This document shows positions 765 through 13,127 of a stretch of 64,000 nt of DNA, one piece after another. Below the pieces are notes generated by a model that did not search any database, was not told the origin of the DNA, and saw only the letters and a program-made list of their open reading frames with translations. Where the stretch lies: positions 2,327,001 through 2,391,000 of the forward strand of contig CP166130.1 of NCBI GenBank assembly GCA_041228335.1, given 5' to 3'. This stretch comes from Alphaproteobacteria bacterium LSUCC0684 (GTDB lineage Bacteria > Pseudomonadota > Alphaproteobacteria > Puniceispirillales > UBA1172). The position numbers and the translations under genes are program-made. Positions within the stretch are counted from its first letter, which is position 1. Every line of letters begins with the position of its first letter.

Positions 765-2039
765 CTATTCGGCGACCGCCTTGACTTCACCCACGGCACC
801 CGAGGCAACAACACCTTCCAGCTCATCGCCTGCATAGCCGAGGACATCGGTCAGAATTTCCATTGTATGCTCACCAAGCAAGGGTGATCGCACAACCTCA
901 ACCGGGCTTTCCGACAATTTGATCGGGCAGCCCACCGAAATGTATTCTCCACGCTCCGGATGATCGACCCGGACAAGAGTGCCAGTGGCATAGAGCCCTT
1001 CGTCTTCCGAGATTTCCTTCATCGACAGGATCGGGCCCACCGGAATATCGAGAGGATTACACACATCCATGATCTCGAACTTGGTCTTGGTCATGGTCCA
1101 TTGCTCGATCCGTTCAAAGATTTCGTTCAACTTGTCCAGACGCTCAGGCGGCGTTGCGTAACCTTCCCGGGTTTTCCAGTCCGGCTCACCAATGACATCG
1201 CAGACCTTTTCCCAGACCGCGGCCTGCACGATGAAATAGGTATAGGCGTTGGGATCGGTCTCCCAGCCCTTGCATTTCAGGATCCGGCCAGGCTGGCCGC
1301 CACCGGAATCGTTACCCGCACGCGGGGTTGCCTCACCAAAGGGAATACCCTCACCAAACTGGGAGTATTCCTTGAGCGGGCCGGCGGCGAGGCGCTGCTG
1401 GTCCCGCAACTTGACGCGGGCAAGGTTGAGCACCGCGTCCTGCATGGCGGCGGTCACGCGCTGGCCGCGGCCGGATTTCTCGCGCTGAAAGAGCGCGGTC
1501 ACAATCCCGAGGCAGAGGTGAAGCCCGGTGCCGGAATCCCCGATCTGCGCCCCGGTCACCAGTGGCGGGCCGTCAAGAAACCCGGTAGTCGACGCCGAGC
1601 CGCCCGCGCATTGAGCCACGTTTTCATAAACCTTGCAGTCTTCATATTTGCCCGGACCAAACCCCTTGATGGACGCAAGGATGATGCGCGGGTTGATCTC
1701 CTGGATGCGCTCCCATGAAAATCCCATCCGGTCGAGTGCGCCGGGAGCAAAATTTTCCACCAGCACATCGCAGGTTTCAATAAGCCGGGTCAGGACCTGC
1801 TTGCCGGTTTCGTTCTTGGAATTCAGCTCGATCGATCTCTTGTTGTGATTGAGCATGGTGAAATAGAGACTGTCCGCCCCCGGTACGTCAACAAGCTGTT
1901 TGCGGGTGGCATCGCCAACCCCCGGGCGTTCCACCTTGATCACATCCGCGCCAAACCAGGCCAGCAACTGGGTGCAGGTCGGCCCGGACTGAACATGGGT
2001 AAAATCGAGTACTTTGATACCTTCGAGAGCTTTCATCAT
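765..2039 (-). CDS. frc: Formyl-CoA:oxalate CoA-transferase (class III CoA-transferase)
   Basis: It transfers CoA from formyl-CoA to oxalate, giving oxalyl-CoA and formate, in the cytosol. The 424-residue length matches Frc. The N-terminus [20 protein letters not shown] is the typical CaiB/BaiF start, with [14 protein letters not shown] following; the aspartate expected to form the acyl anhydride lies in [10 protein letters not shown] or the nearby [11 protein letters not shown] region. A longer reading frame extends upstream to 2159 but runs into the oxc gene; the ATG at 2039 (or 2036) follows a CAGGACAG site and was chosen. It lies 37 bp after oxc and is probably co-transcribed with it. Confidence is high because the gene pair is diagnostic of the pathway. 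Confidence 0.93.
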
Positions 2040-2076: not shown

Positions 2077-3810
2077 CTATTTCTTGCTGACCACGCTTTG
2101 CGGGTTGAGGTTCCCGATGCGGCCGCTTTCGGTGCCGGCGTTTTCATCGATAACGGCATTCACCAGCGTCGGCTTGCCTGAGGAGATCGCCTCCTCAACC
2201 GCCTGGCGCAGCTCATCGGGGCTGGTCGCATAGACGCCATTGCCGCCAAAGGCCTGCATCATCAGATCATAGCGGGCATCTTTCACGAAGACGGTGGGTG
2301 CCACATCATTGCCGCCGGTCGGGTTCGTGTCCGTTCCCCGGTAGATCCCGTTATTGTTGAAGACAACAACGCAGACCGGCAGGTTATAGCGGCAGATTGT
2401 TTCAATCTCCATGCCCGAAAACCCGAAGGCGCTGTCGCCTTCCACCGCCAGCACCGGCTGACCTGTCTCAACGGCGGCGGCGACGGCGGCCCCCATGCCG
2501 ATCCCCATGATCCCCCAGGTGCCAACGTCAATCCGGTGACGTGGCCGATAGATGTCGATGATGCTGCGGGCAAAATCGAGGGTGTTTGCGCCTTCGTTCA
2601 CCAGAATGGTATCGGGACGTTCCTTGATCACGTTCTTGAGCACGCCAAGAGCGCTGTGGAAATCCATAGGTGTTGCATTGCTCATCAGTTTGGCGGCCAT
2701 CCGCTCAAGATTGGTCTCTTTCTTGGCGGTGATGGTATCGGTCCAGTCCGCGGGAGGCTTGCTCCAGCCTTTGCCCATGCCATCCAGCATTGCCCGCAGC
2801 ACGGAGCCGATATCGCCGACCAGGGGCGCGGCAATCTCGACATTGCTGTCCATTTCCATCGCCTCGATATCCACCTGGATGAATTTCTTGGAAAACGGCT
2901 CTCCCCATGTCTTGCCCTTGCCATGAGAAAGCAGCCAGTTCAGCCGTGCTCCGACCAGCATGACGACATCCGATTCCTTGAGCACAAGCGACCGCGCGGC
3001 GCCCGCGGATTGCGGGTGATCATCGGGCAAGAGCCCCTTGGCCATGCTCATCGGCAGATAGGGAATGCCGCTTGTTTCGACAAACTTGCGCACCACGTCA
3101 TCCTCTTGAGCATAGGCCGCGCCCTTACCCAGAATGATGAGCGGTTTTTTTGCGGATTTGAGCACGTCGAGCGCGCGCTTCACCGCATCCGGATCCGGCA
3201 ATTGTTTCGGCGCCGGGTCGATGACCTTGACAAGGGACTTCCGGCCCTTTTCAGCATCCATGACCTGGGCAAAGAGTTTGGCCGGAAGATCGAGATACAC
3301 CCCGCCCGGACGCCCGGAGACCGCCGCCCGGATAGCGCGGGCAACCCCGATACCGATATCTTCGGCATGAAGTATCCGATACGCCGCCTTGCAAAGCGGC
3401 TTGGCGATGGCGAGCTGGTCCATCTCCTCGTAATCCCCCTGCTGGAGATCGACAATCTCACGTTCCGACGATCCGCTGATGAGAATCATGGGAAAGCAGT
3501 TGGTGGTGGCATTGGCCAGCGCCGTCAGCCCGTTGAGAAATCCCGGTGCTGAAACCGTCAGGCAAACCCCTGGCTTCCTGGTCAGAAATCCGGCCACCGC
3601 CGCCGCGTTGCCGGAATGCTGTTCGTGCCGGAAGGATAGCACCCGCATGCCTTCGGCCTGGGCCAGCCTGCCCAGATCCGTGATCGGAATCCCGGGCACG
3701 CCATAAATGGTGTTGATACCATTCAGCTTGAGCGCATCGATAACAAGATGAAAACCATCGGTAAGGTTCTGTGTTTCCGTTTCAACCGCAGTTGCTTCTG
3801 GCGCTGTCAT
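2077..3810 (-). CDS. oxc: Oxalyl-CoA decarboxylase (thiamine diphosphate enzyme)
   Basis: It decarboxylates oxalyl-CoA to formyl-CoA and CO2. The 577-residue protein has the three-domain ThDP architecture: an N-terminal Pyr domain with the conserved glutamate in [13 protein letters not shown], a middle domain, and a C-terminal PP domain with the [11 protein letters not shown] metal-binding motif and NNNGIYRG. The motif ALAIAKP...QGDYEEMDQ resembles Oxc rather than acetolactate synthase. The start at 3810 follows GAGGAGAGA; the reading frame is open further upstream, but no better start is seen. It sits between the gntR regulator and frc, and runs in the same direction as both. With frc it regenerates the formyl-CoA used for the next CoA exchange. 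Confidence 0.94.
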
Positions 3811-3842: not shown

Positions 3843-4568
3843 TCAATCTTCGATGTCAGATGTGGTGTTTTTCTCTTCAAGGCTGTCAAGCCGCGTCCAT
3901 CGATCATGGATGTGGTCATGCAGCCGCATCGTGTGATTGCGGACAAGCCGGGAGGCAAGTTCCGCATCACGGGCTTCAAGCGCCTCAATGATCTCCATGT
4001 GATCGGCAACGGACCGCGAAGCCCGGTTGTCTTCGCCCATGGCCCGGCGGCGAACCGCGTACATATGGATAAAGAGATCTTCGGCTGAACTGCATAAGAG
4101 GGGGCAGCCCGATAACTCAAGAATGCTCTGATGAAATTTGATATTGGCGTCGGAATACTCGCCAAGCTCGGCCATCGCCGATTTGGTGCTGTGGCTCATG
4201 GCGAATTTGCGCAACGCCTTCAGATCGGCGTCCGTTGCCACGCCGACGGCAAGATAGGCGGCCATGCTTTCAAGCGCCGCCCAGGTCTTGATCATATCAA
4301 GAATTTCCGTAAGGGACTTGCGGTGGATGAACACCCCCTTGCGCGGGATGATCTCCACAAGGCCATCCTGCGACAGGCGCGCCAGCGCTTCACGGATAGG
4401 CGTTCGGGAAATGCCGAGCTGCTCAGCAAGTTTGCGCTCATCAAGACGCATATCCTGGCTGAAATTATAGATATCGACCTTGCGGATACTGTCCCGCAAC
4501 ACCTCATAGATGTGATCCTTCAAGGTGAAATTGATGGATACAGGTTTAAGTTTCACATCTATCGGCAC
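3843..4568 (-). CDS. GntR-family regulator, FCD (FadR) subfamily, probable oxalate-pathway regulator
   Basis: The 241-residue protein has an N-terminal winged helix ([21 protein letters not shown], split here as [12 protein letters not shown] and [11 protein letters not shown], about residues 38-75) and an all-helical FCD ligand domain with the metal-ligand pattern D..FH ([16 protein letters not shown]) and [16 protein letters not shown] regulators usually bind carboxylic acids. The start is GTG at 4568. The gene is first in the leftward oxc-frc operon, 32 bp before oxc. Two TGGTATACC palindromes lie just upstream and a perfect version lies before fdh, so it probably autoregulates and controls formate dehydrogenase. 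Oxalate or a CoA ester is an obvious effector candidate, but that is inference. Confidence 0.88.
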
Positions 4569-4636
4569 AAGTCACCCCCCGGTCAGATACGGCCCGTTCA
4601 GGCGGGCCAAAAACATGATCTGTTTTTTCTTTATCT

Positions 4637-4644
4637 GGTATACC
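4637..4644. promoter_or_regulatory. Operator candidate 1, GGTATACC in TTATCTGGTATACCTTAC
   Basis: An 8-bp palindrome whose left flank TTATCT is the same as in the perfect palindrome at 12891-12912. It lies 69 bp upstream of the gntR start and is placed to overlap the leftward promoter. Confidence 0.6.
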
Positions 4645-4719
4645 TTACACCCTATCCAAAGCCGGTCAAGCCCAATTTTTTCAAAATCAGGGGAGAAATG
4701 AGTTGCAATATTTGGCATA

Positions 4720-4729
4720 TGGTATACCA
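4720..4729. promoter_or_regulatory. Operator candidate 2, TGGTATACCA
   Basis: A perfect 10-bp palindrome 84 bp (eight helical turns) from operator candidate 1, centre to centre. It is also inside an outer TTGG/CCAA repeat (4712-4715, 4727-4730). It lies in the 406-bp gap between gntR and sucC, so it could act on either side. The rest of this gap (4731-4960) shows no gene or strong hairpin. Confidence 0.6.
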
Positions 4730-4974
4730 AGAATAGAGGTGTTTCCGGCGTGAAAGACCGGCTTGCACGCTATCGTTCTGATGCTCGATTTTCGCCGCAA
4801 CGGCAGGGCAGTTTTCGCGTAAGTGATGCATGGAGGAAGGCAGAAAGATGATACATCAGCAACCGAGCGGCGTTGATTTCATCACCAGGTACAGGCATAA
4901 GATGCTGAGCCTTGCAGCTATCCTGCCAATATCGATATCGCCAGGGACATGTGGGGAGTTAAGGAGATGAAACA

Positions 4975-6168
4975 ATGAACATTCATGAATATCAGGCCAA
5001 ACAGGTTCTCAAGGATTTTGGCGCACCGGTGGCCCGCGGCGTGGCCATCACCAGCCTCGACGAAGCCCAGGCGGCGGTGGATCAGCTGCCGGGGCCGGTC
5101 TGGGTGGTCAAGAGCCAGATTCATGCAGGTGGCCGCGGCAAGGGCAAGTTCAAGGAGCTTGGCGACGACGCCAAGGGAGGTGTTCGCGTCAGTTTCTCCC
5201 GCGATGAAGCCTTGCAGAATATCGAGGAAATGTTCGGCAAAACGCTGGTCACCAACCAGACAGGTCCCGCCGGCAAGGCAGTCAACCGGCTTTATATCGA
5301 AGACGGCGCGGCGATTGATCGCGAACTCTATCTTTCCATTCTTGTCGATCGCGAAACCGGCCAGACATCTTTTGTTGTCTCCACCGAAGGCGGCATGGAC
5401 ATTGAAACCGTGGCCCATGACACGCCGGAAAAGATACACTCCGTCGGTATCCGCGCCAGCGCCGGCTGCACCGAGGCTGATGCCAGCCAGCTTGCCGATG
5501 CCCTCAAGCTCGAAGGAGAGGCAAGGGCCGATGGCATGGAGCTCTTCGCCAATCTCTACAAGGCATTCACCTCGAAAGACATGAGCCTTCTTGAGATCAA
5601 CCCGCTGATCGTCACCAAGGAGAACAGGCTGCAGGTGCTTGACGCAAAGGTCTCCTTTGATGGCAACGCGCTGTTCCGCCACCCCGATATCATGGAGCTG
5701 CGCGATATCACCGAGGAGGACGACAAGGAAATCGAGGCCTCCAAATATGACCTGGCCTATATCGCTCTTGACGGCGATATCGGCTGCATGGTCAATGGCG
5801 CAGGTCTGGCCATGGCCACCATGGATATCATCAAGATGTACGGGGCTGAGCCGGCAAACTTTCTCGATGTCGGGGGCGGGGCGACAACTGAAAAAGTGAC
5901 CGCCGCCTTCAAGATCATCACCGCTGATCCGAATGTCAAAGGCATTCTTGTCAATATTTTCGGCGGCATCATGCGCTGCGATGTCATCGCCGAAGGGGTG
6001 GTGACCGCGGCACGTGAAGTCGGCCTTCAAGTGCCGCTTGTGGTGCGGCTCGAAGGCACCAAAGTCGCCGAAGGCAAAGCCATCATCGAGAAAAGCGGGC
6101 TGAACGTGATTGCCGCCGATGATCTTGATGATGCGGCGCAGAAAATCGTCAATGCGGTAAGGGGGTAA
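4975..6168 (+). CDS. sucC: Succinyl-CoA synthetase beta subunit (ATP-grasp)
   Basis: With the alpha subunit it interconverts succinate, CoA and NTP with succinyl-CoA. The 397-residue length and the start [19 protein letters not shown] are typical of SucC. An ATP-grasp domain carries [16 protein letters not shown] and [10 protein letters not shown], followed by the CoA-ligase domain with [20 protein letters not shown] and [12 protein letters not shown] strong AAGGAG site precedes the ATG. The gene overlaps nothing and lies 4 bp before sucD. In many alphaproteobacteria sucCD sits with mdh and sucAB; here it stands alone and divergent from the oxalate operon. A malate-CoA ligase (MtkA) is the alternative, but the N-terminus and length look more like SucC. 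Confidence 0.88.
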
Positions 6169-6172
6169 GACC

Positions 6173-7075
6173 ATGTCGATACTTATCAACAAAGACACGA
6201 AAGTCATCGTTCAGGGGCTTACCGGCAAGACCGGAACCTTCCATACCGAGCAGGCGCTGGCCTATCACGGAACCCAGATGGTAGCAGGCACGCATCCATC
6301 GAAAGGCGGTCAGGAATGGGTGAGCGCTGACGGGGTGAGGCTTCCTCTTTTCGCCACCGTGGCCGAAGCCAGGGAGGCAACCGGCGCCAATGCCTCGGTG
6401 ATCTATGTTCCCCCGGCAGGGGCGGCGGCGGCCATCGAAGAATCCATCGATGCCGGGATTGAGCTTATCACCTGCATTACCGAAGGCGTGCCTGTTCAGG
6501 ACATGGTCCGGGTCAAGGAGAAACTGGATGCCTCCGGCTCACGCCTCATCGGCCCCAACTGCCCGGGTCTGCTGACGCCTGAAGAATGCAAGATCGGCAT
6601 CATGCCGAGCAGTATCTTCCGCCGCGGATCTGTTGGTGTGTTGTCGCGCTCTGGCACCCTGACCTATGAAGCGGTGTTCCAGACATCCCAGGAAGGGCTC
6701 GGCCAGTCGACGGCGGTCGGCATAGGGGGCGATCCGGTCAAGGGAACCGAGTTTATCGATATTCTCGAGATGTTCCTCGGCGATCCGGAAACAACCTCGA
6801 TTATCATGATCGGTGAAATCGGCGGCTCGGCCGAAGAAGACGCAGCCCAGTTTCTAAAAGATGAAGCCAAAAAGGGACGCGCCAAGCCAACGGTGGGCTT
6901 CATCGCTGGCCGGACCTCACCTCCGGGCCGGACCATGGGTCATGCCGGTGCCGTGATTTCCGGCGGCAAAGGCGGCGCCGAAGACAAGATCGAGGCCCTC
7001 CAATCCGCCGGGGTCAAAGTATCCCCATCGCCAGCGCAACTGGGGCAGACCCTGGTCAATCTCCTCAAAGGATAA
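6173..7075 (+). CDS. sucD: Succinyl-CoA synthetase alpha subunit
   Basis: The 300-residue alpha subunit binds CoA and carries the phosphohistidine. The N-terminal CoA-binding domain starts [39 protein letters not shown] follows; the phosphohistidine is in [18 protein letters not shown] (about residue 250). It starts 4 bp after the sucC stop and is followed by a strong terminator at 7093-7126, so sucCD is a two-gene operon. Role as for sucC. The same MtkB alternative applies and is less likely. Confidence 0.88.
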
Positions 7076-7092
7076 AAAACGTCCTCCCAGCG

Positions 7093-7126
7093 AAAAGAGC
7101 GTCACCCCAGTGACGCTCTTTTTTTA
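7093..7126 (+). terminator. Rho-independent terminator after sucCD
   Basis: A 13-bp perfect stem (AAAAGAGCGTCAC with GTGACGCTCTTTT) and a CCCA loop run into a T tract. The A-rich left arm means it may work in both directions and also end the leftward ketopantoate-reductase-like transcript, whose stop is at 7145. Confidence 0.92.
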
Positions 7127-7144
7127 TATCTGAAGAAGAAAGAT

Positions 7145-8209
7145 CTAGACGGCCTGGGACATCGGCACGGAACTGGCCGCGTTGTCTTCAAGCCGCGCAT
7201 CCACGATGGCCACAATCCGGTCCACGGTCGAGTTCTGAAGGCCGAATCGCTGACCGATCCGCTGAACGAGACGATCCACCCGTTCGATCTTCTCGGCGCC
7301 GCTATCGATGGCGCGTGCCGCCGAGGACGGCTTGAGCAGATTCTGTGCCGCATTGGCGTATTTTTCAAAAGGAACCTGATCTTCGGCAGATGCACCGAGG
7401 CGCCGGGCCAGTTGATCCACCCAGTGATACATCGCCTCGGATGAGGCGACATCCCCATGCACCGCATCACGGATCGGCTGAACATGGTCAACCTCAACAC
7501 AGCGGTAATTCCCCGTCAGCAGCATGCTCCATTTCGCCATTGGCACGAAAAGGCTGTCATGCACCCGGAGTTTGACCGGAACATCCTTGCCATCCAGTTG
7601 TACGGCGGCGATATCGTCTTCCAGCTGGCGCAACATGGCGCTGTGTTCAGGACAGGCGAAATCCGCTGCCTTGAAATTGGTCGGCAGGCCGACATGAAGA
7701 ATGTTTGCGCCTTCTTCGGGCGGCCGGAACGCCTGCGGATCAGGGCTGCAGAGCGTCACCAGATCCGGATCAAAATTATCCCATACCGAGGCATCATCAA
7801 AACAGTCCGAAAGATCGGCATCAGCGAGGCTTTCAATCCGGCGAAGATATGGAAGCGGCGGCATGTTCATAATCGAAAGACAGGGCTTGCCGCTCAGGGC
7901 GATGCGCTGCATCAATTCCCGCACCGAGGGTGAGGAATACTGCGGCTCCTGCATGGCAAGGGCGATCATGTCATAATTTTCGGGCCTTGCGTCCTCAGGC
8001 GTGACGGCGTCAACCGATCCCGGCAGATCCGCCGACCTTATCGAGCGATGCGTATCCTCATCCTTGAGCTTGATCCGGACTTCCGTGCCTTCCTTGTTGA
8101 TCAGCGCCGCCGTCCGGGCGCGGCAGATCAGGGAGACGTCATGTCCCGCCATCAGAAGTTTGGTTGATAGAAGCGAGCCGTAGGATGCTCCGAGAATCAA
8201 AATACGCAT
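7145..8209 (-). CDS. Ketopantoate reductase-like NADP-dependent dehydrogenase (ApbA/PanE family)
   Basis: The 354-residue protein begins MRILILGASYGSLLSTKLLMAGHDVSLICRA, here cited as ILGASYGSLLSTKL, the GxGxxG Rossmann motif of the ApbA/PanE N-terminal domain. The C-terminal half is helical with KWSMLLTGNYRC, the position of the KxxxN motif in this family (PanE has Lys and Asn at the active site). The GTG at 8218 lies directly on the ribosome site; the ATG at 8209 has AGGAAGG at good spacing and was preferred. At this length it is longer than PanE (about 300), so the substrate is probably not ketopantoate. It lies downstream of fdhA in the same direction after a 151-bp gap with its own palindrome, so it may have a separate promoter. 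Confidence 0.7.
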   Translation of the reverse strand: MRILILGASYGSLLSTKLLMAGHDVSLICRARTAALINKEGTEVRIKLKDEDTHRSIRSADLPGSVDAVTPEDARPENYDMIALAMQEPQYSSPSVRELMQRIALSGKPCLSIMNMPPLPYLRRIESLADADLSDCFDDASVWDNFDPDLVTLCSPDPQAFRPPEEGANILHVGLPTNFKAADFACPEHSAMLRQLEDDIAAVQLDGKDVPVKLRVHDSLFVPMAKWSMLLTGNYRCVEVDHVQPIRDAVHGDVASSEAMYHWVDQLARRLGASAEDQVPFEKYANAAQNLLKPSSAARAIDSGAEKIERVDRLVQRIGQRFGLQNSTVDRIVAIVDARLEDNAASSVPMSQAV

Positions 8210-8303
8210 GATGGTCACCTTCCTGCCAGATCATCTGTCTTGACCCGTGCAATCTACAAGACAGGCCCGTAATCCCTAAGGAAAATGGTGAAAACCAGAA
8301 AAT

Positions 8304-8318
8304 TGTAAATTATTTACA
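8304..8318. promoter_or_regulatory. Palindrome TGTAAA-TTA-TTTACA upstream of the ketopantoate reductase-like gene
   Basis: A perfect 6-3-6 inverted repeat in the fdhA to KPR-like gap, 95 bp before the start at 8209. It could be an operator for an unidentified regulator. It lacks the GC-rich stem and T tract of a terminator. Confidence 0.35.
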
Positions 8319-8360
8319 TTTACACAATCCGGCGCGGGTGACCCGGGATTCACATCGCTT

Positions 8361-11129
<2,769 letters not shown>

Positions 11130-11139
11130 GGCCCCCGCC

Positions 11140-12867
11140 TCAGCTAATTTCGTCGGCAAAATGTTTCATCGTCAGCCGGATCGGATTTGGCGCTGCCTGA
11201 CCTAGCCCGCAAATCGACGCATCCTGCATCACCTCGCAGAGATCCGACAGCAGTTCCTGATCCCATGTCTCCGCCTGCATCAGCTGCACCGCCTTGCCGC
11301 ATCCTGTCCGGCACGGCGTGCATTGCCCGCAGCTTTCATCCTCGAAAAACCGCAGCATGTTCAACGCCGCATCACGGACCCGATCCTGATCCGACAACAC
11401 CACCACCGCGGCGGAACCGATAAAACTCCCCAGCGGTTGCAGCGTGTCAAAATCAAGCGGCACATCATCAATCGAAGCTGGCAGTATCCCCGAAGATGGC
11501 CCCCCGGGCTGGTAGGCACGGAATGCGTGACCCGCCATCATCCCGCCCGCCGCGGCAATGATATCGGTGATCGTCGAGCCCGCCGGCAACAGATACACCC
11601 CGGGCTTCGCCACCCGGCCGGATACCGAATAACTCCTCAGCCCCTTGCGGCCGTTCTTCTCAACCGATGACAGTATCTCCGGGCCTTCCCGGCAGACCCG
11701 CGCCACCCAGTGCAGCGTTTCGATATTATGCACCAGCGTCGGCCGGCCAAAAAGACCAACCTGCGCGACATAGGGCGGGCGATGACGCGGCAGACCACGC
11801 TTGCCTTCGATCGACTCGATCATCGCGCTTTCCTCACCGCAGATATACGCCCCCGCACCGCGCCGCAACTCAACATATCCAGCCTCGACAAGACCTGACC
11901 CTTCAAGCGCCCTGATCTCACGACGCAGAATCTCCAGAACCGCCGGATACTCATCCCGCATGTAGATATAACAGCGTTCAGCTTCCACGGCCCAGGCCGC
12001 GATCAGCATCCCTTCGAGAAACAGATGCGGCACCCGCTCAAGATAATATCTGTCCTTGAAGGTTCCGGGCTCGCCCTCATCCCCGTTCACCGCAAGATAG
12101 CGTGGCCCTTCGGCTGCCCGAACAAAACCCCATTTCCGGCCCGATGGAAATCCCGCCCCGCCAAGACCGCGAAGACCGCTTGCCAGCACCGTTTCCTGCA
12201 CCTCTTCCCAGGACCCGCCGGCACGTAACTCCTCAAGTTTCGCGTACCCGCCCTCGGCGCGATACGCCGCCAGGTCTTGATAAACCGGTATATGTGCGTG
12301 GGTTTCTCCGGCCGCGATTGCCGCCTCAACCTTGGCAAGATCCGCATGGTCGATATGATGATGGCCAAGCTCTAGGGCCGGAGCGGTATCGCATCTCCCC
12401 ATGCAGGGCGCCCGCAAGACACGCACTTCCGACGGATCAAGACCTTCTTCAAGCGCCGCCTTGAGCGCCGAGGCACCGGCAAGCTCACAGGACAGCGAAT
12501 CACAGACCCGGATCGTCAGCGCCGGTGGCGGCGTCTCCCCCTCACCCACCACCGTGAAATGCGCATAGAAACTCGCAACCTCATACACTTCCGCCTGCGC
12601 CAGTTTCAACTCGCTTGCCAGCGCGCAGAGATGCGCATGACCAAGATACCCGTACCTGTCCTGAATCAGATGAAGGTATTCGATCAGAAGATCGCGGCGA
12701 TACGGGCCAGAACCAAGCAGAACTCGAACCTCGGATAACGCTCCAGAATCAACCTGACGTCCCTTCGGCGTCTTCCGACCCTTACCTGAACCACTCTTCC
12801 AGATACCTTTGTTTTCGGTAATCGCGGTCAATTCATCCTCCCTCGGCTCTGAGACAGAGTTTTCCAC
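11140..12867 (-). CDS. Formate dehydrogenase beta subunit, NuoE-NuoF fusion (diaphorase)
   Basis: It passes electrons from the alpha subunit to NAD+. The N-terminal third is a NuoE/thioredoxin-like [2Fe-2S] domain (CDSLSC near 120 and CMGRCD near 153). The rest is NuoF: GLGGAGFPSGRKWGF (NADH site), YICGEESAMIESIEGKRG (FMN site), and the [4Fe-4S] set ESCGQCTPCRTGC plus SICGLGQ. In Fds-type enzymes these are two proteins (FdsG and FdsB); here they are fused, as in Methylorubrum Fdh1B. The longest frame uses GTG at 12867, but GGGAGGA lies 4 nt before an in-frame TTG at 12831, which may be the true start (563 residues). The operon promoter region holds the 22-bp palindrome. Confidence 0.92.
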   Translation of the reverse strand: MENSVSEPREDELTAITENKGIWKSGSGKGRKTPKGRQVDSGALSEVRVLLGSGPYRRDLLIEYLHLIQDRYGYLGHAHLCALASELKLAQAEVYEVASFYAHFTVVGEGETPPPALTIRVCDSLSCELAGASALKAALEEGLDPSEVRVLRAPCMGRCDTAPALELGHHHIDHADLAKVEAAIAAGETHAHIPVYQDLAAYRAEGGYAKLEELRAGGSWEEVQETVLASGLRGLGGAGFPSGRKWGFVRAAEGPRYLAVNGDEGEPGTFKDRYYLERVPHLFLEGMLIAAWAVEAERCYIYMRDEYPAVLEILRREIRALEGSGLVEAGYVELRRGAGAYICGEESAMIESIEGKRGLPRHRPPYVAQVGLFGRPTLVHNIETLHWVARVCREGPEILSSVEKNGRKGLRSYSVSGRVAKPGVYLLPAGSTITDIIAAAGGMMAGHAFRAYQPGGPSSGILPASIDDVPLDFDTLQPLGSFIGSAAVVVLSDQDRVRDAALNMLRFFEDESCGQCTPCRTGCGKAVQLMQAETWDQELLSDLCEVMQDASICGLGQAAPNPIRLTMKHFADEIS

Positions 12868-12890
12868 TTGTGGCTTGATGCGTCAAATAA

Positions 12891-12912
12891 ATTATCTGGT
12901 ATACCAGATAAT
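12891..12912. promoter_or_regulatory. Perfect 22-bp palindrome upstream of the fdh operon
   Basis: ATTATCTGGTA followed by its exact reverse complement. The core TGGTATACCA equals the sites beside the oxalate regulator gene. It lies 24 bp (or 60 bp if TTG is used) before the fdhB start. Probable binding site of the FCD-GntR protein. Confidence 0.75.
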
Positions 12913-13127
12913 TTTTTGCGCCGCCCTTTCGCAAGTAACCCTGCCAGTCCATCCTCACCAGCCCATTCATCGGGCCAGCAAACAGATCCAACGCCATAAA
13001 ACACTTCCCTTAATTGACCAGCGCCGGTGATTGCGCTACCAAATTCACGACAGGAACAGGTGGATACCCGACAGTCTCAACCGGAACACCGTTTTTGGGG
13101 ATAGGATTTTTCAAACAGGATCAGGCC

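What the first reader, a model, noticed from the sequence alone, without database searches (positions are those of the whole stretch)
4631..12912. One palindromic operator links oxalate breakdown with formate dehydrogenase
GGTATACC sits twice beside the FCD-GntR gene (4637-4644, 4720-4729), and a perfect 22-bp version lies before fdhB (12891-12912). All three share the TGGTATACC core, and the first and third also share TTATCT on the left flank. The set defines a likely regulon for oxalate to CO2 with one regulator. I did not see the same core elsewhere in the window.
Basis: partly seen in the sequence, partly recalled or inferred. Interest (0 to 1): 0.72.

Follow-up and report, generated by a model that had tools for sequence, protein, structure and literature searches.

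The report
Shared switch site for oxalate breakdown
In this ocean bacterium (probably of the SAR116 group) one DNA-binding site, very likely recognised by the neighbouring GntR-type regulator, sits in front of both the oxalate-degrading genes and the formate-oxidising genes, so the two halves of the route from oxalate to CO2 are probably switched together; the kind of switch is ordinary, but in one related genus the regulator has become fused to the enzyme it controls.

Summary
Observation confirmed: TGGTATACC occurs at three places in the window (chance mean 0.15): twice in the gntR/sucC divergent promoter and once before fdhB. The fdhB site is a 26-bp (not 22-bp) perfect palindrome, the longest in the window. 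Interpretation supported by comparison. A motif model trained only on gntR-promoter sites was tried on fdhB promoters of the order (SAR116, inferred): with the regulator, 16 of 17 score 10 or more and the last is degraded; without it, 2 of 35 promoters do (two incomplete assemblies from a genus that carries the regulator) and 2 more are weak. A relative lacking the regulator but keeping oxc, fdhBA and sucCD has no site. The operator is a standard FadR-subfamily (FCD-GntR) box, TGGT-AT-ACCA. The regulator/oxc/frc module is widespread in Proteobacteria; the fdh branch was seen only in this order (0 of 7 fdhB promoters read elsewhere). The divergent sucCD is the only SucC match in the genome, so the set is not purely oxalate-to-CO2. 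Binding, effector and sign of regulation are untested; I infer repression relieved by a small carboxylate or CoA ester. Most novel item: in genus g4 (6 of 6 genomes with the regulator) GntR is fused in frame to oxalyl-CoA decarboxylase, with an internal start retained.

The parts
3843..4568 (-). gntR: FCD-type (FadR-subfamily) GntR regulator, 241 aa, proposed to bind the three sites and to regulate itself
   Evidence: Pfam FCD 2.6e-23 and GntR 4.3e-16; orthologue in 21 of 136 order genomes; AlphaFold model mean pLDDT 83.3 matches solved FCD-GntR structures
4629..4652 (.). Site 1: operator in the gntR/sucC divergent promoter (core 4637-4644), centre about 72 bp before the gntR GTG
   Evidence: same sequence on the other strand (TGTAAGGTATACCAGATAA) in G001, G003 and 7 of 11 regulator-bearing g14 genomes
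4713..4736 (.). Site 2: second operator (core 4720-4729) with outer TGGCAT arm, about 250 bp before sucC, 84 bp from site 1
   Evidence: of 20 genomes whose gntR/sucC region was read, 9 have two sites 83-89 bp apart, exactly 84 in 6 of them, this one included
12889..12914 (.). Site 3: 26-bp perfect palindromic operator before fdhB; centre about 70 bp before the likely TTG start at 12831
   Evidence: counterpart in 17 of 17 regulator-bearing genomes whose fdhB promoter could be read, this one included (16 scoring 10 or more, one degraded)
2077..3810 (-). oxc: oxalyl-CoA decarboxylase (likely ATG start at 3810 after GAGGAG; the listed ORF runs to 3846)
   Evidence: TIGR03254 1012.9 bits, cut-off 739.4; start
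765..2039 (-). frc: formyl-CoA transferase (listed ORF 765-2159; family matches start near residue 41)
   Evidence: TIGR03253 692.8 bits, cut-off 504.2
4975..6168 (+). sucC: succinate-CoA ligase beta, divergent from gntR; only SucC match in the genome
   Evidence: NF001913 551.2 bits, cut-off 370; malate-CoA ligase model below its cut-off
6173..7075 (+). sucD: succinate-CoA ligase alpha
   Evidence: NF004230 443.1 bits, cut-off 336
11140..12867 (-). fdhB: fused NuoE/NuoF-like diaphorase subunit of NAD-linked formate dehydrogenase (likely TTG start 12831)
   Evidence: Pfam 2Fe-2S_thioredx, Complex1_51K, SLBB, NADH_4Fe-4S; adjacent to fdhA; NCBIfam NuoE/NuoF cut-offs not reached
8361..11159 (-). 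fdhA: molybdopterin formate dehydrogenase alpha subunit
   Evidence: TIGR01591 726.6 bits, cut-off 666.25

Best explanation
A small regulon run by one FCD-type GntR regulator, encoded at 3843-4568. A dimer binds an inverted repeat with core TGGTATACCA (FadR-subfamily box, TKGT/ACMA with a 2-nt centre) at two sites in its own divergent promoter, controlling gntR-oxc-frc and probably sucCD, and at a third site before fdhBA. Shown by comparison: the sites, their conservation, and their joint presence or absence with the regulator. Inferred: that this protein is the binder; that it represses and is released by a small carboxylate or its CoA ester (oxalate, oxalyl-CoA, formyl-CoA or formate); that induction then turns on oxalyl-CoA decarboxylation and CoA transfer (making formate) together with formate oxidation to CO2 and NADH. 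In this order the fdh operon appears to have been added to an older, widespread oxalate module.
For: Three sites at the right promoters and nowhere else in the window. Family of 12 genomes: exact WGGTATACCAGAY in 10 of 10 with the regulator and 0 of 2 without (reversed control 4 strand-hits in 4 genomes against 20 in 10); both latter genomes keep fdhBA, and G011 also keeps oxc and sucCD. Order of 136: exact motif in 19 of 21 genomes with the regulator (reversed control 9 of 21), 26 of 28 places at the gntR/sucC or fdhB promoter (one site counted twice on overlapping contigs of G010); the two misses are G102, which has TGGTATACCACATA, and G105, whose contig ends at the gene start. In 115 genomes without it, 34 distinct sites in 26 genomes (reversed control in 43 by my count of the table), 31 of them inside open reading frames. 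Motif model trained on gntR-promoter sites alone: fdhB promoter score 10 or more in 16 of 17 versus 2 of 35. Named loci: oxc or frc nearby in 55 of 63, promoter motif with 0 of 100 shuffles as good in 44 of 63. Operator matches the published FadR-subfamily 2-nt class (PMC4494728). N142, H146, H190, H212 and R173 are invariant in 24 of 24 aligned proteins, spaced nearly as NanR's metal and carboxylate ligands (PMC8012715).
Against: No binding or expression data. Four genus-g14 genomes without a detected regulator have fdhB-promoter sites (G095 22.0 and G097 25.3; G091 and G092 weak, 9.0, with 3 and 0 of 200 shuffles); they are 51-80% complete, so the gene may be unassembled, but that is not shown. 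G104 has the regulator but a degraded fdhB site (7.3, 5 of 200), and G006 and G009 have a changed half-site (10.4, 11.5). With 1 mismatch allowed the reversed control hits as often as the motif in most family genomes, so that looser search is no evidence by itself. Site 2 in the window is weak. No sigma-70 promoter was recognised near the sites, so repression versus activation cannot be read off. Outside the order 0 of 7 fdhB promoters carry the site, and 19 of 63 named regulator promoters miss the 0-of-100 mark. Another FCD-GntR in G131 has a similar operator beside its own gene, so the box is not exclusive. The genomes are related, so the tests overstate independence.
Confidence: 0.82

Rival explanations
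1. The fdhB palindrome is read by another FCD-GntR paralogue with the same box, so oxalate and formate genes share a motif but not a regulator.
For: The genome holds 6 further weak GntR matches; G131 has a different FCD-GntR with a near-identical operator beside a TctC-like gene.
Against: The fdhB site is present or absent together with this regulator in the well-assembled genomes read (17 of 17 with it; G002, G011, G100, each 99% complete, lack both). The model built on gntR sites alone finds the fdhB sites.
Confidence: 0.1
2. The regulator is an activator (or dual) rather than a repressor; site 3, about 70 bp before the fdhB start, works as an upstream activating site.
For: A TTGACG hexamer lies just downstream of site 3 on the fdhB strand by eye; no promoter overlapping a site was found.
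Against: Most characterised FadR-subfamily regulators repress (recalled); promoters are not mapped.
Confidence: 0.25
3. The 26-bp palindrome is a transcription terminator or RNA hairpin between fdhB and qor, unrelated to gntR.
For: Perfect palindrome between divergent genes.
Against: No terminator-like element; mainly the operator core is kept in relatives while flanks change, and the site is missing where the regulator is missing in well-assembled genomes.
Confidence: 0.03
4. The regulon is a general C1/formate regulon in which oxalate is not the inducer; formate or formyl-CoA is sensed.
For: In G001, G090, G094 and this genome the oxc-frc genes are followed on the same strand by a formyltransferase gene and formate-tetrahydrofolate ligase (Pfam for both in G001 and for the formyltransferase here; the rest by eye).
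Against: Across Proteobacteria the usual neighbours are oxc or frc (55 of 63 named loci), and fdhB lay on few of these loci, without the site.
Confidence: 0.3

Closest known systems
[quoted passage not shown]
   Same: FCD domain; A/T-rich palindrome with TKGT/ACMA boxes, 2-nt centre; local regulon beside the regulator gene
   Different: The paper's main text holds 'formate' 0 times and the 'oxal' hits shown are pyridoxal; here longer arms (TGGYAT..ATRCCA) in many relatives and a second operon, fdhBA, in this order
NanR of E. coli (sialic acid repressor)
   Same: FCD-GntR; half-site GGTATA; metal and carboxylate pocket residues at nearly the same spacing
   Different: NanR binds direct GGTATA repeats with three dimers (PMC8012715 passages); here the half-sites form an inverted repeat. 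NanR model score 71.6 against cut-off 260
PmiR of Pseudomonas aeruginosa (PDB 7xp0/7xp1)
   Same: Best sequence match among solved structures and third in fold search
   Different: 27-28% identity; different genes regulated (recalled)
Oxalate degradation by oxc and frc in oxalotrophs
   Same: Oxc and Frc above curated cut-offs
   Different: Operator-linked formate dehydrogenase and divergent sucCD; PMC10192776 (passages) reports marine alphaproteobacterial oxc, and 'regulat' occurs 0 times in its main text
MocR-subfamily regulators
   Same: A GntR DNA-binding domain fused to an enzyme-like domain, as in the genus-g4 fusion (MocR description in PMC4494728)
   Different: MocR carries an aminotransferase-like domain; the g4 protein keeps the FCD region and adds a TPP decarboxylase

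Membership tests
FadR-subfamily (FCD) GntR regulator | N-terminal GntR winged helix plus C-terminal FCD domain | tested here: met
   Pfam PF00392 58.7 bits (cut-off 27), PF07729 83.2 bits (cut-off 24.3); fold match to FCD regulators
FadR-subfamily (FCD) GntR regulator | Operator with TKGT/ACMA boxes, 2 or 3 nt between GT and AC | tested here: met
   TGGT-AT-ACC(A) at three places (site 1 has ACCT on one side); consensus from PMC4494728
FadR-subfamily (FCD) GntR regulator | Metal-binding D/N-H-H-H set in FCD domain | tested here: met
   N142, H146, H190, H212 invariant in 24 of 24; NanR D172, H176, H222, H244; here N replaces D; metal itself not tested
FadR-subfamily (FCD) GntR regulator | Protein binds the operator and is released by a ligand | not testable with these tools
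   needs gel shift or footprint
NanR-type operator | Direct GGTATA repeats | tested here: not met
   Half-sites are inverted
TIGR03338 phnR_burk | Score above curated cut-off | tested here: not met
   100.1 bits against 271.5
Oxalyl-CoA decarboxylase / formyl-CoA transferase | Scores above equivalog cut-offs | tested here: met
   TIGR03254 1012.9 (739.4), TIGR03253 692.8 (504.2)
NAD-linked molybdenum formate dehydrogenase | TIGR01591 alpha subunit above cut-off plus NuoE/F-like partner | tested here: met
   726.6 (666.25); Pfam of partner; enzyme activity not tested
Malate-CoA ligase (serine cycle) | NF010647 above cut-off | tested here: not met
   476.4 against 604; succinate-CoA ligase model passes, 551.2 against 370

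The most novel reading that the evidence does not exclude
In genus g4 of this family the regulator of the regulon is one polypeptide with the enzyme it controls: GntR-FCD, a 75-100-residue linker, then oxalyl-CoA decarboxylase, with an internal ribosome site and ATG that could also make free decarboxylase. Fused subunits could sit in the decarboxylase oligomer and tether the repressor to the enzyme, so that catalysis or substrate occupancy directly sets DNA binding: a regulator-enzyme of an architecture I found undescribed, whose regulon extends to formate dehydrogenase.
Probability: 0.35. Interest if true: 0.72.

Novelty: new member of a known kind. Interest (0 to 1): 0.5.

Why it matters
It ties the two halves of oxalate oxidation (making formate, then burning it) to one switch in a marine group for which my searches found little on oxalate, and gives a concrete operator that can be tested by gel shift. 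It also offers natural experiments: relatives without the regulator lack the operator at genes they keep, and one genus fused regulator and enzyme, which makes the question of how an oxalate sensor reads flux directly testable.

Tried and rejected
Rejected: (1) sucCD as a dedicated malate- or oxalate-CoA ligase: it is the only SucC match in the genome and scores as succinate-CoA ligase. (2) Motif as a genome-wide repeat: the 9-mer is rarer than its reversed control. (3) Motif in family f3 as evidence of a wider regulon: all f3 sites read lie inside open reading frames, for example urease gamma. (4) pntA-like gene as regulon member: strong site only in G003 (there inside the end of the preceding ORF), 1 of 11 genomes with a match; G000 has a weak one (6.6, 2 of 200 shuffles); 7 of the 11 match at only 46-50% and may be a different member of that family. 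(5) Site inside qor of G006 as the fdhB operator: a degenerate site nearer fdhB is shared with G009. (6) Promoter/terminator scan gave nothing. (7) G206's 523-aa frame as another fusion: it is an upstream extension that ends with the regulator.

Literature, open-licence library only: oxalyl-CoA decarboxylase with GntR (3 papers), SAR116 with oxalate, the decamer (39, 30 papers, 20 listed, titles mostly on respiratory viruses), oxalate/FDH/GntR/Frc, GntR with GGTATACC (41, none), oxalate regulator terms, GntR fused trigger enzyme (63, none), GntR/oxalate/frc/oxc (66, 62 papers, 15 listed). Nothing listed described this operator, regulon or fusion; apart from passages of PMC8305402 and PMC10192776 I saw listings only for these. 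PMC4494728: passages and section 10. PMC8012715: passages. PMC3368413: passages.

Rows dropped: of 18 regulator-bearing genomes with an fdhB match, G007 was dropped because its contig ends inside fdhB; G003, G005 and G102 had no usable fdhB match. Of 75 genomes without the regulator but with fdhB, 34 were examined (35 promoters). Of 80 named loci, the 63 best (L220-L282) were analysed; L283-L299 (36% identity or less) were left out.
Full report
What is there. TGGTATACC occurs at three places in the window and nowhere else. Sites 1 and 2 lie between the divergent genes gntR and sucC; site 3 lies before fdhB. Gene calls by curated profiles: frc, oxc, FCD-type gntR, sucC, sucD, a weakly apbA-like protein, fdhA, fdhB (NuoE-like plus NuoF-like), a PIG3-type quinone oxidoreductase, and pckA. 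The likely fdhB start is the TTG at 12831, preceded by AGGGAGGA and matching the TTG starts of relatives, which puts site 3 about 70 bp upstream.

The organism. The window lies in a single-contig genome of 2,704,644 bases. Its order includes G089, whose contig is 2,753,527 bases, the length printed for Candidatus Puniceispirillum marinum IMCC1322 (PMC3368413, passages). I infer that the order is the marine SAR116 clade.

Is the motif rare? The bare 9-mer is not enriched in the genome (10 strand-matches against 15 for the reversed control). Of its five other places, three fall inside long ORFs of genes recognisable by eye and two in regions of uncertain coding; their motif scores run from below 7 to 12.4, against 30.1, 26.2 and 16.4 for the three sites. 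WGGTATACCAGAY with up to one mismatch gives only the three sites and one hit in an acyl-CoA-dehydrogenase-like ORF, which scores 14.0. Site 2 alone would not be significant (shuffled windows reach 17.6); its support is that 9 of the 20 genomes read carry two sites 83-89 bp apart, six of them, this one included, at exactly 84.

Does it go with the regulator? In the family of 12 genomes the orthologue is present in 10 and absent from G002 and G011. The exact motif is present in those 10 and absent from the other two (Fisher p 0.015); with one mismatch the two still have none, but there the reversed control is as frequent as the motif in most genomes. G011 keeps fdhBA with sucDC beside it and keeps oxc elsewhere; G002 keeps fdhBA but no oxc was found. 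In the order, 21 of 136 genomes have the orthologue. The exact motif occurs in 19 of these 21, reversed control in 9; 26 of its 28 places are at the gntR/sucC or fdhB promoter. In the 115 genomes without it, 34 distinct sites occur in 26 genomes, reversed control in 43 by my count; 31 of the 34 lie inside open reading frames. The three others are two in G097 (before fdhB and before a tctC transporter gene), a 70%-complete genome of a genus whose members carry the regulator, and one in G131 beside a different FCD-GntR gene.

The fdhB test. I built a motif model from 29 sites of 20 genomes, all in the gntR/sucC promoter, and scored 350 bp upstream of the fdhB match. With the regulator: 16 of 17 promoters score 10 or more, each with at most 2 of 200 shuffles as good (G006 and G009, at 10.4 and 11.5, have a changed half-site); the seventeenth, G104, scores 7.3 (5 of 200). 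One of the 17, G001, has a divergent fdhB (57% identical) on another contig than gntR. Without the regulator: 35 promoters of 34 genomes; 2 score 10 or more (G095, G097) and 2 have a weak variant at 9.0 (G091, G092), all four from genus g14 and 51-80% complete; the remaining 31 score at most 5.7, and the 18 genomes of at least 90% completeness at most 2.6. Fisher p 2.4e-10; restricted to close fdhB orthologues p 0.003. These p-values ignore shared ancestry.

Wider distribution. With a profile of the regulator, 80 named loci were fetched. Of the best 63, oxc lies within 2.5 kb in 38, and oxc or frc nearby in 55; the motif model finds a promoter site with 0 of 100 shuffles as good in 44, including Roseovarius, Jannaschia, Granulosicoccus, Nisaea, Bosea and Bradyrhizobium loci. 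The 19 that miss this mark include Asaia, Ancylobacter radicis and several Paraburkholderia and Caballeronia loci. In many relatives the operator has outer arms, as in TGGTGTATGGTATACCAGAGACCA or TGGCATTTGGTATGCCAGAAGCCA; site 2 of the window keeps one such arm (TGGCAT). Of 7 fdhB promoters lying on these loci, none has the site; fdhB genes elsewhere in those genomes were not looked at. So the oxalate module looks old and the formate dehydrogenase branch looks like an addition in this order.

How it most likely works. The protein has a GntR winged helix and FCD domain, its model resembles solved FCD regulators such as PmiR, VanR and TM0439, and N142, H146, H190, H212 and R173 are invariant in 24 of 24 aligned relatives. 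In NanR, D172, H176, H222 and H244 hold zinc and R203 contacts the effector's carboxylate (PMC8012715 passages); the spacings are nearly the same (4, 46, 22 against 4, 44, 22; 27 to the arginine in both). The operator is the FadR-subfamily box with 2-nt centre (PMC4494728, section 10). I therefore infer a dimer that binds TGGTATACCA, represses, and lets go on binding a small carboxylate or its CoA ester. Repression, effector and binding itself are not shown. Because sucCD is the only SucC match in the genome, site 2 is unlikely to shut it off fully; it may modulate it, or serve gntR-oxc by cooperation with site 1. Downstream of frc in this genome follow, on the same strand, a formyltransferase gene, formate-tetrahydrofolate ligase (by eye) and tctC, tctB (by eye) and tctA, which fits a route for using formyl units and for uptake.

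A fusion in relatives. In all six genus-g4 genomes that have the regulator, gntR runs in frame into oxc, giving open frames of 857-921 aa (857 is cut by a contig end). The 75-100 aa linker has no stop in any of the six (chance 0.002-0.014 each by shuffling), although lengths and sequences differ; pN/pS is 0.62, 1.47 and 0.31 in three pairs against 0.02-0.05 in the flanking domains, so the linker is loosely constrained but kept open. All six keep AAAGAGG and an ATG where free Oxc would start, so both products are possible; that ATG may even be the main start, which would make the fusion a minor or absent product. No other oxc was found in these genomes at E 1e-60. G011 of the same genus has an unfused oxc without the regulator. 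No comparable fusion showed in the 63 named loci. I found no report of one.

Verdict. Observation confirmed, interpretation supported with the stated corrections; an ordinary kind of regulon, well supported, with one unusual offshoot.

Noticed in passing
L104:5053-7662, L099:14292-16928, L108:6621-9290, L100:2594-5200, L106:352-2973, L117:3316-5862: GntR regulator fused in frame to oxalyl-CoA decarboxylase in six genus-g4 genomes, with AAAGAGG and an internal ATG kept at the decarboxylase start
   Followed up: yes
L215:3634-9739 (own genome 2321633-2327738): Downstream of frc on the same strand: formyltransferase, formate-tetrahydrofolate ligase, then tctC, tctB, tctA tripartite transporter; possible oxalate or formate uptake and assimilation. 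No operator found before tctC here, but one before tctC in G097 (L197:391)
   Followed up: partly
L206:1007 (G131): A different FCD-GntR gene diverges from a TctC-like gene with TTCTGGTATACCAGA between them: a second regulator with the same box
   Followed up: no
L099:8994-10466 and L190:3253-4707: A ScfRs/IrrE-type regulator gene (Pfam for L099) on the opposite strand sits between fdhA and the apbA-like gene in some relatives; not present there in the window
   Followed up: no
L093:5109 and L094:772 (G003): Two extra strong sites in G003: before a pntA-like gene (inside the end of the preceding ORF) and before a small secreted-looking protein gene; the former is not kept in the family
   Followed up: partly
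L133:1505, L140:1505: A TCTGGTATACCAGA palindrome lies inside urease gamma coding sequence of several family-f3 genomes: a coding coincidence that would fool a plain motif scan
   Followed up: yes
7145-8218: Weakly apbA/ketopantoate-reductase-like protein kept beside fdhA and sucD in many relatives; function unclear
   Followed up: no
L315 and L194 (G104): fdhB with three in-frame TGA and fdhA and sucC matches broken into pieces; may be sequencing errors in that assembly
   Followed up: no
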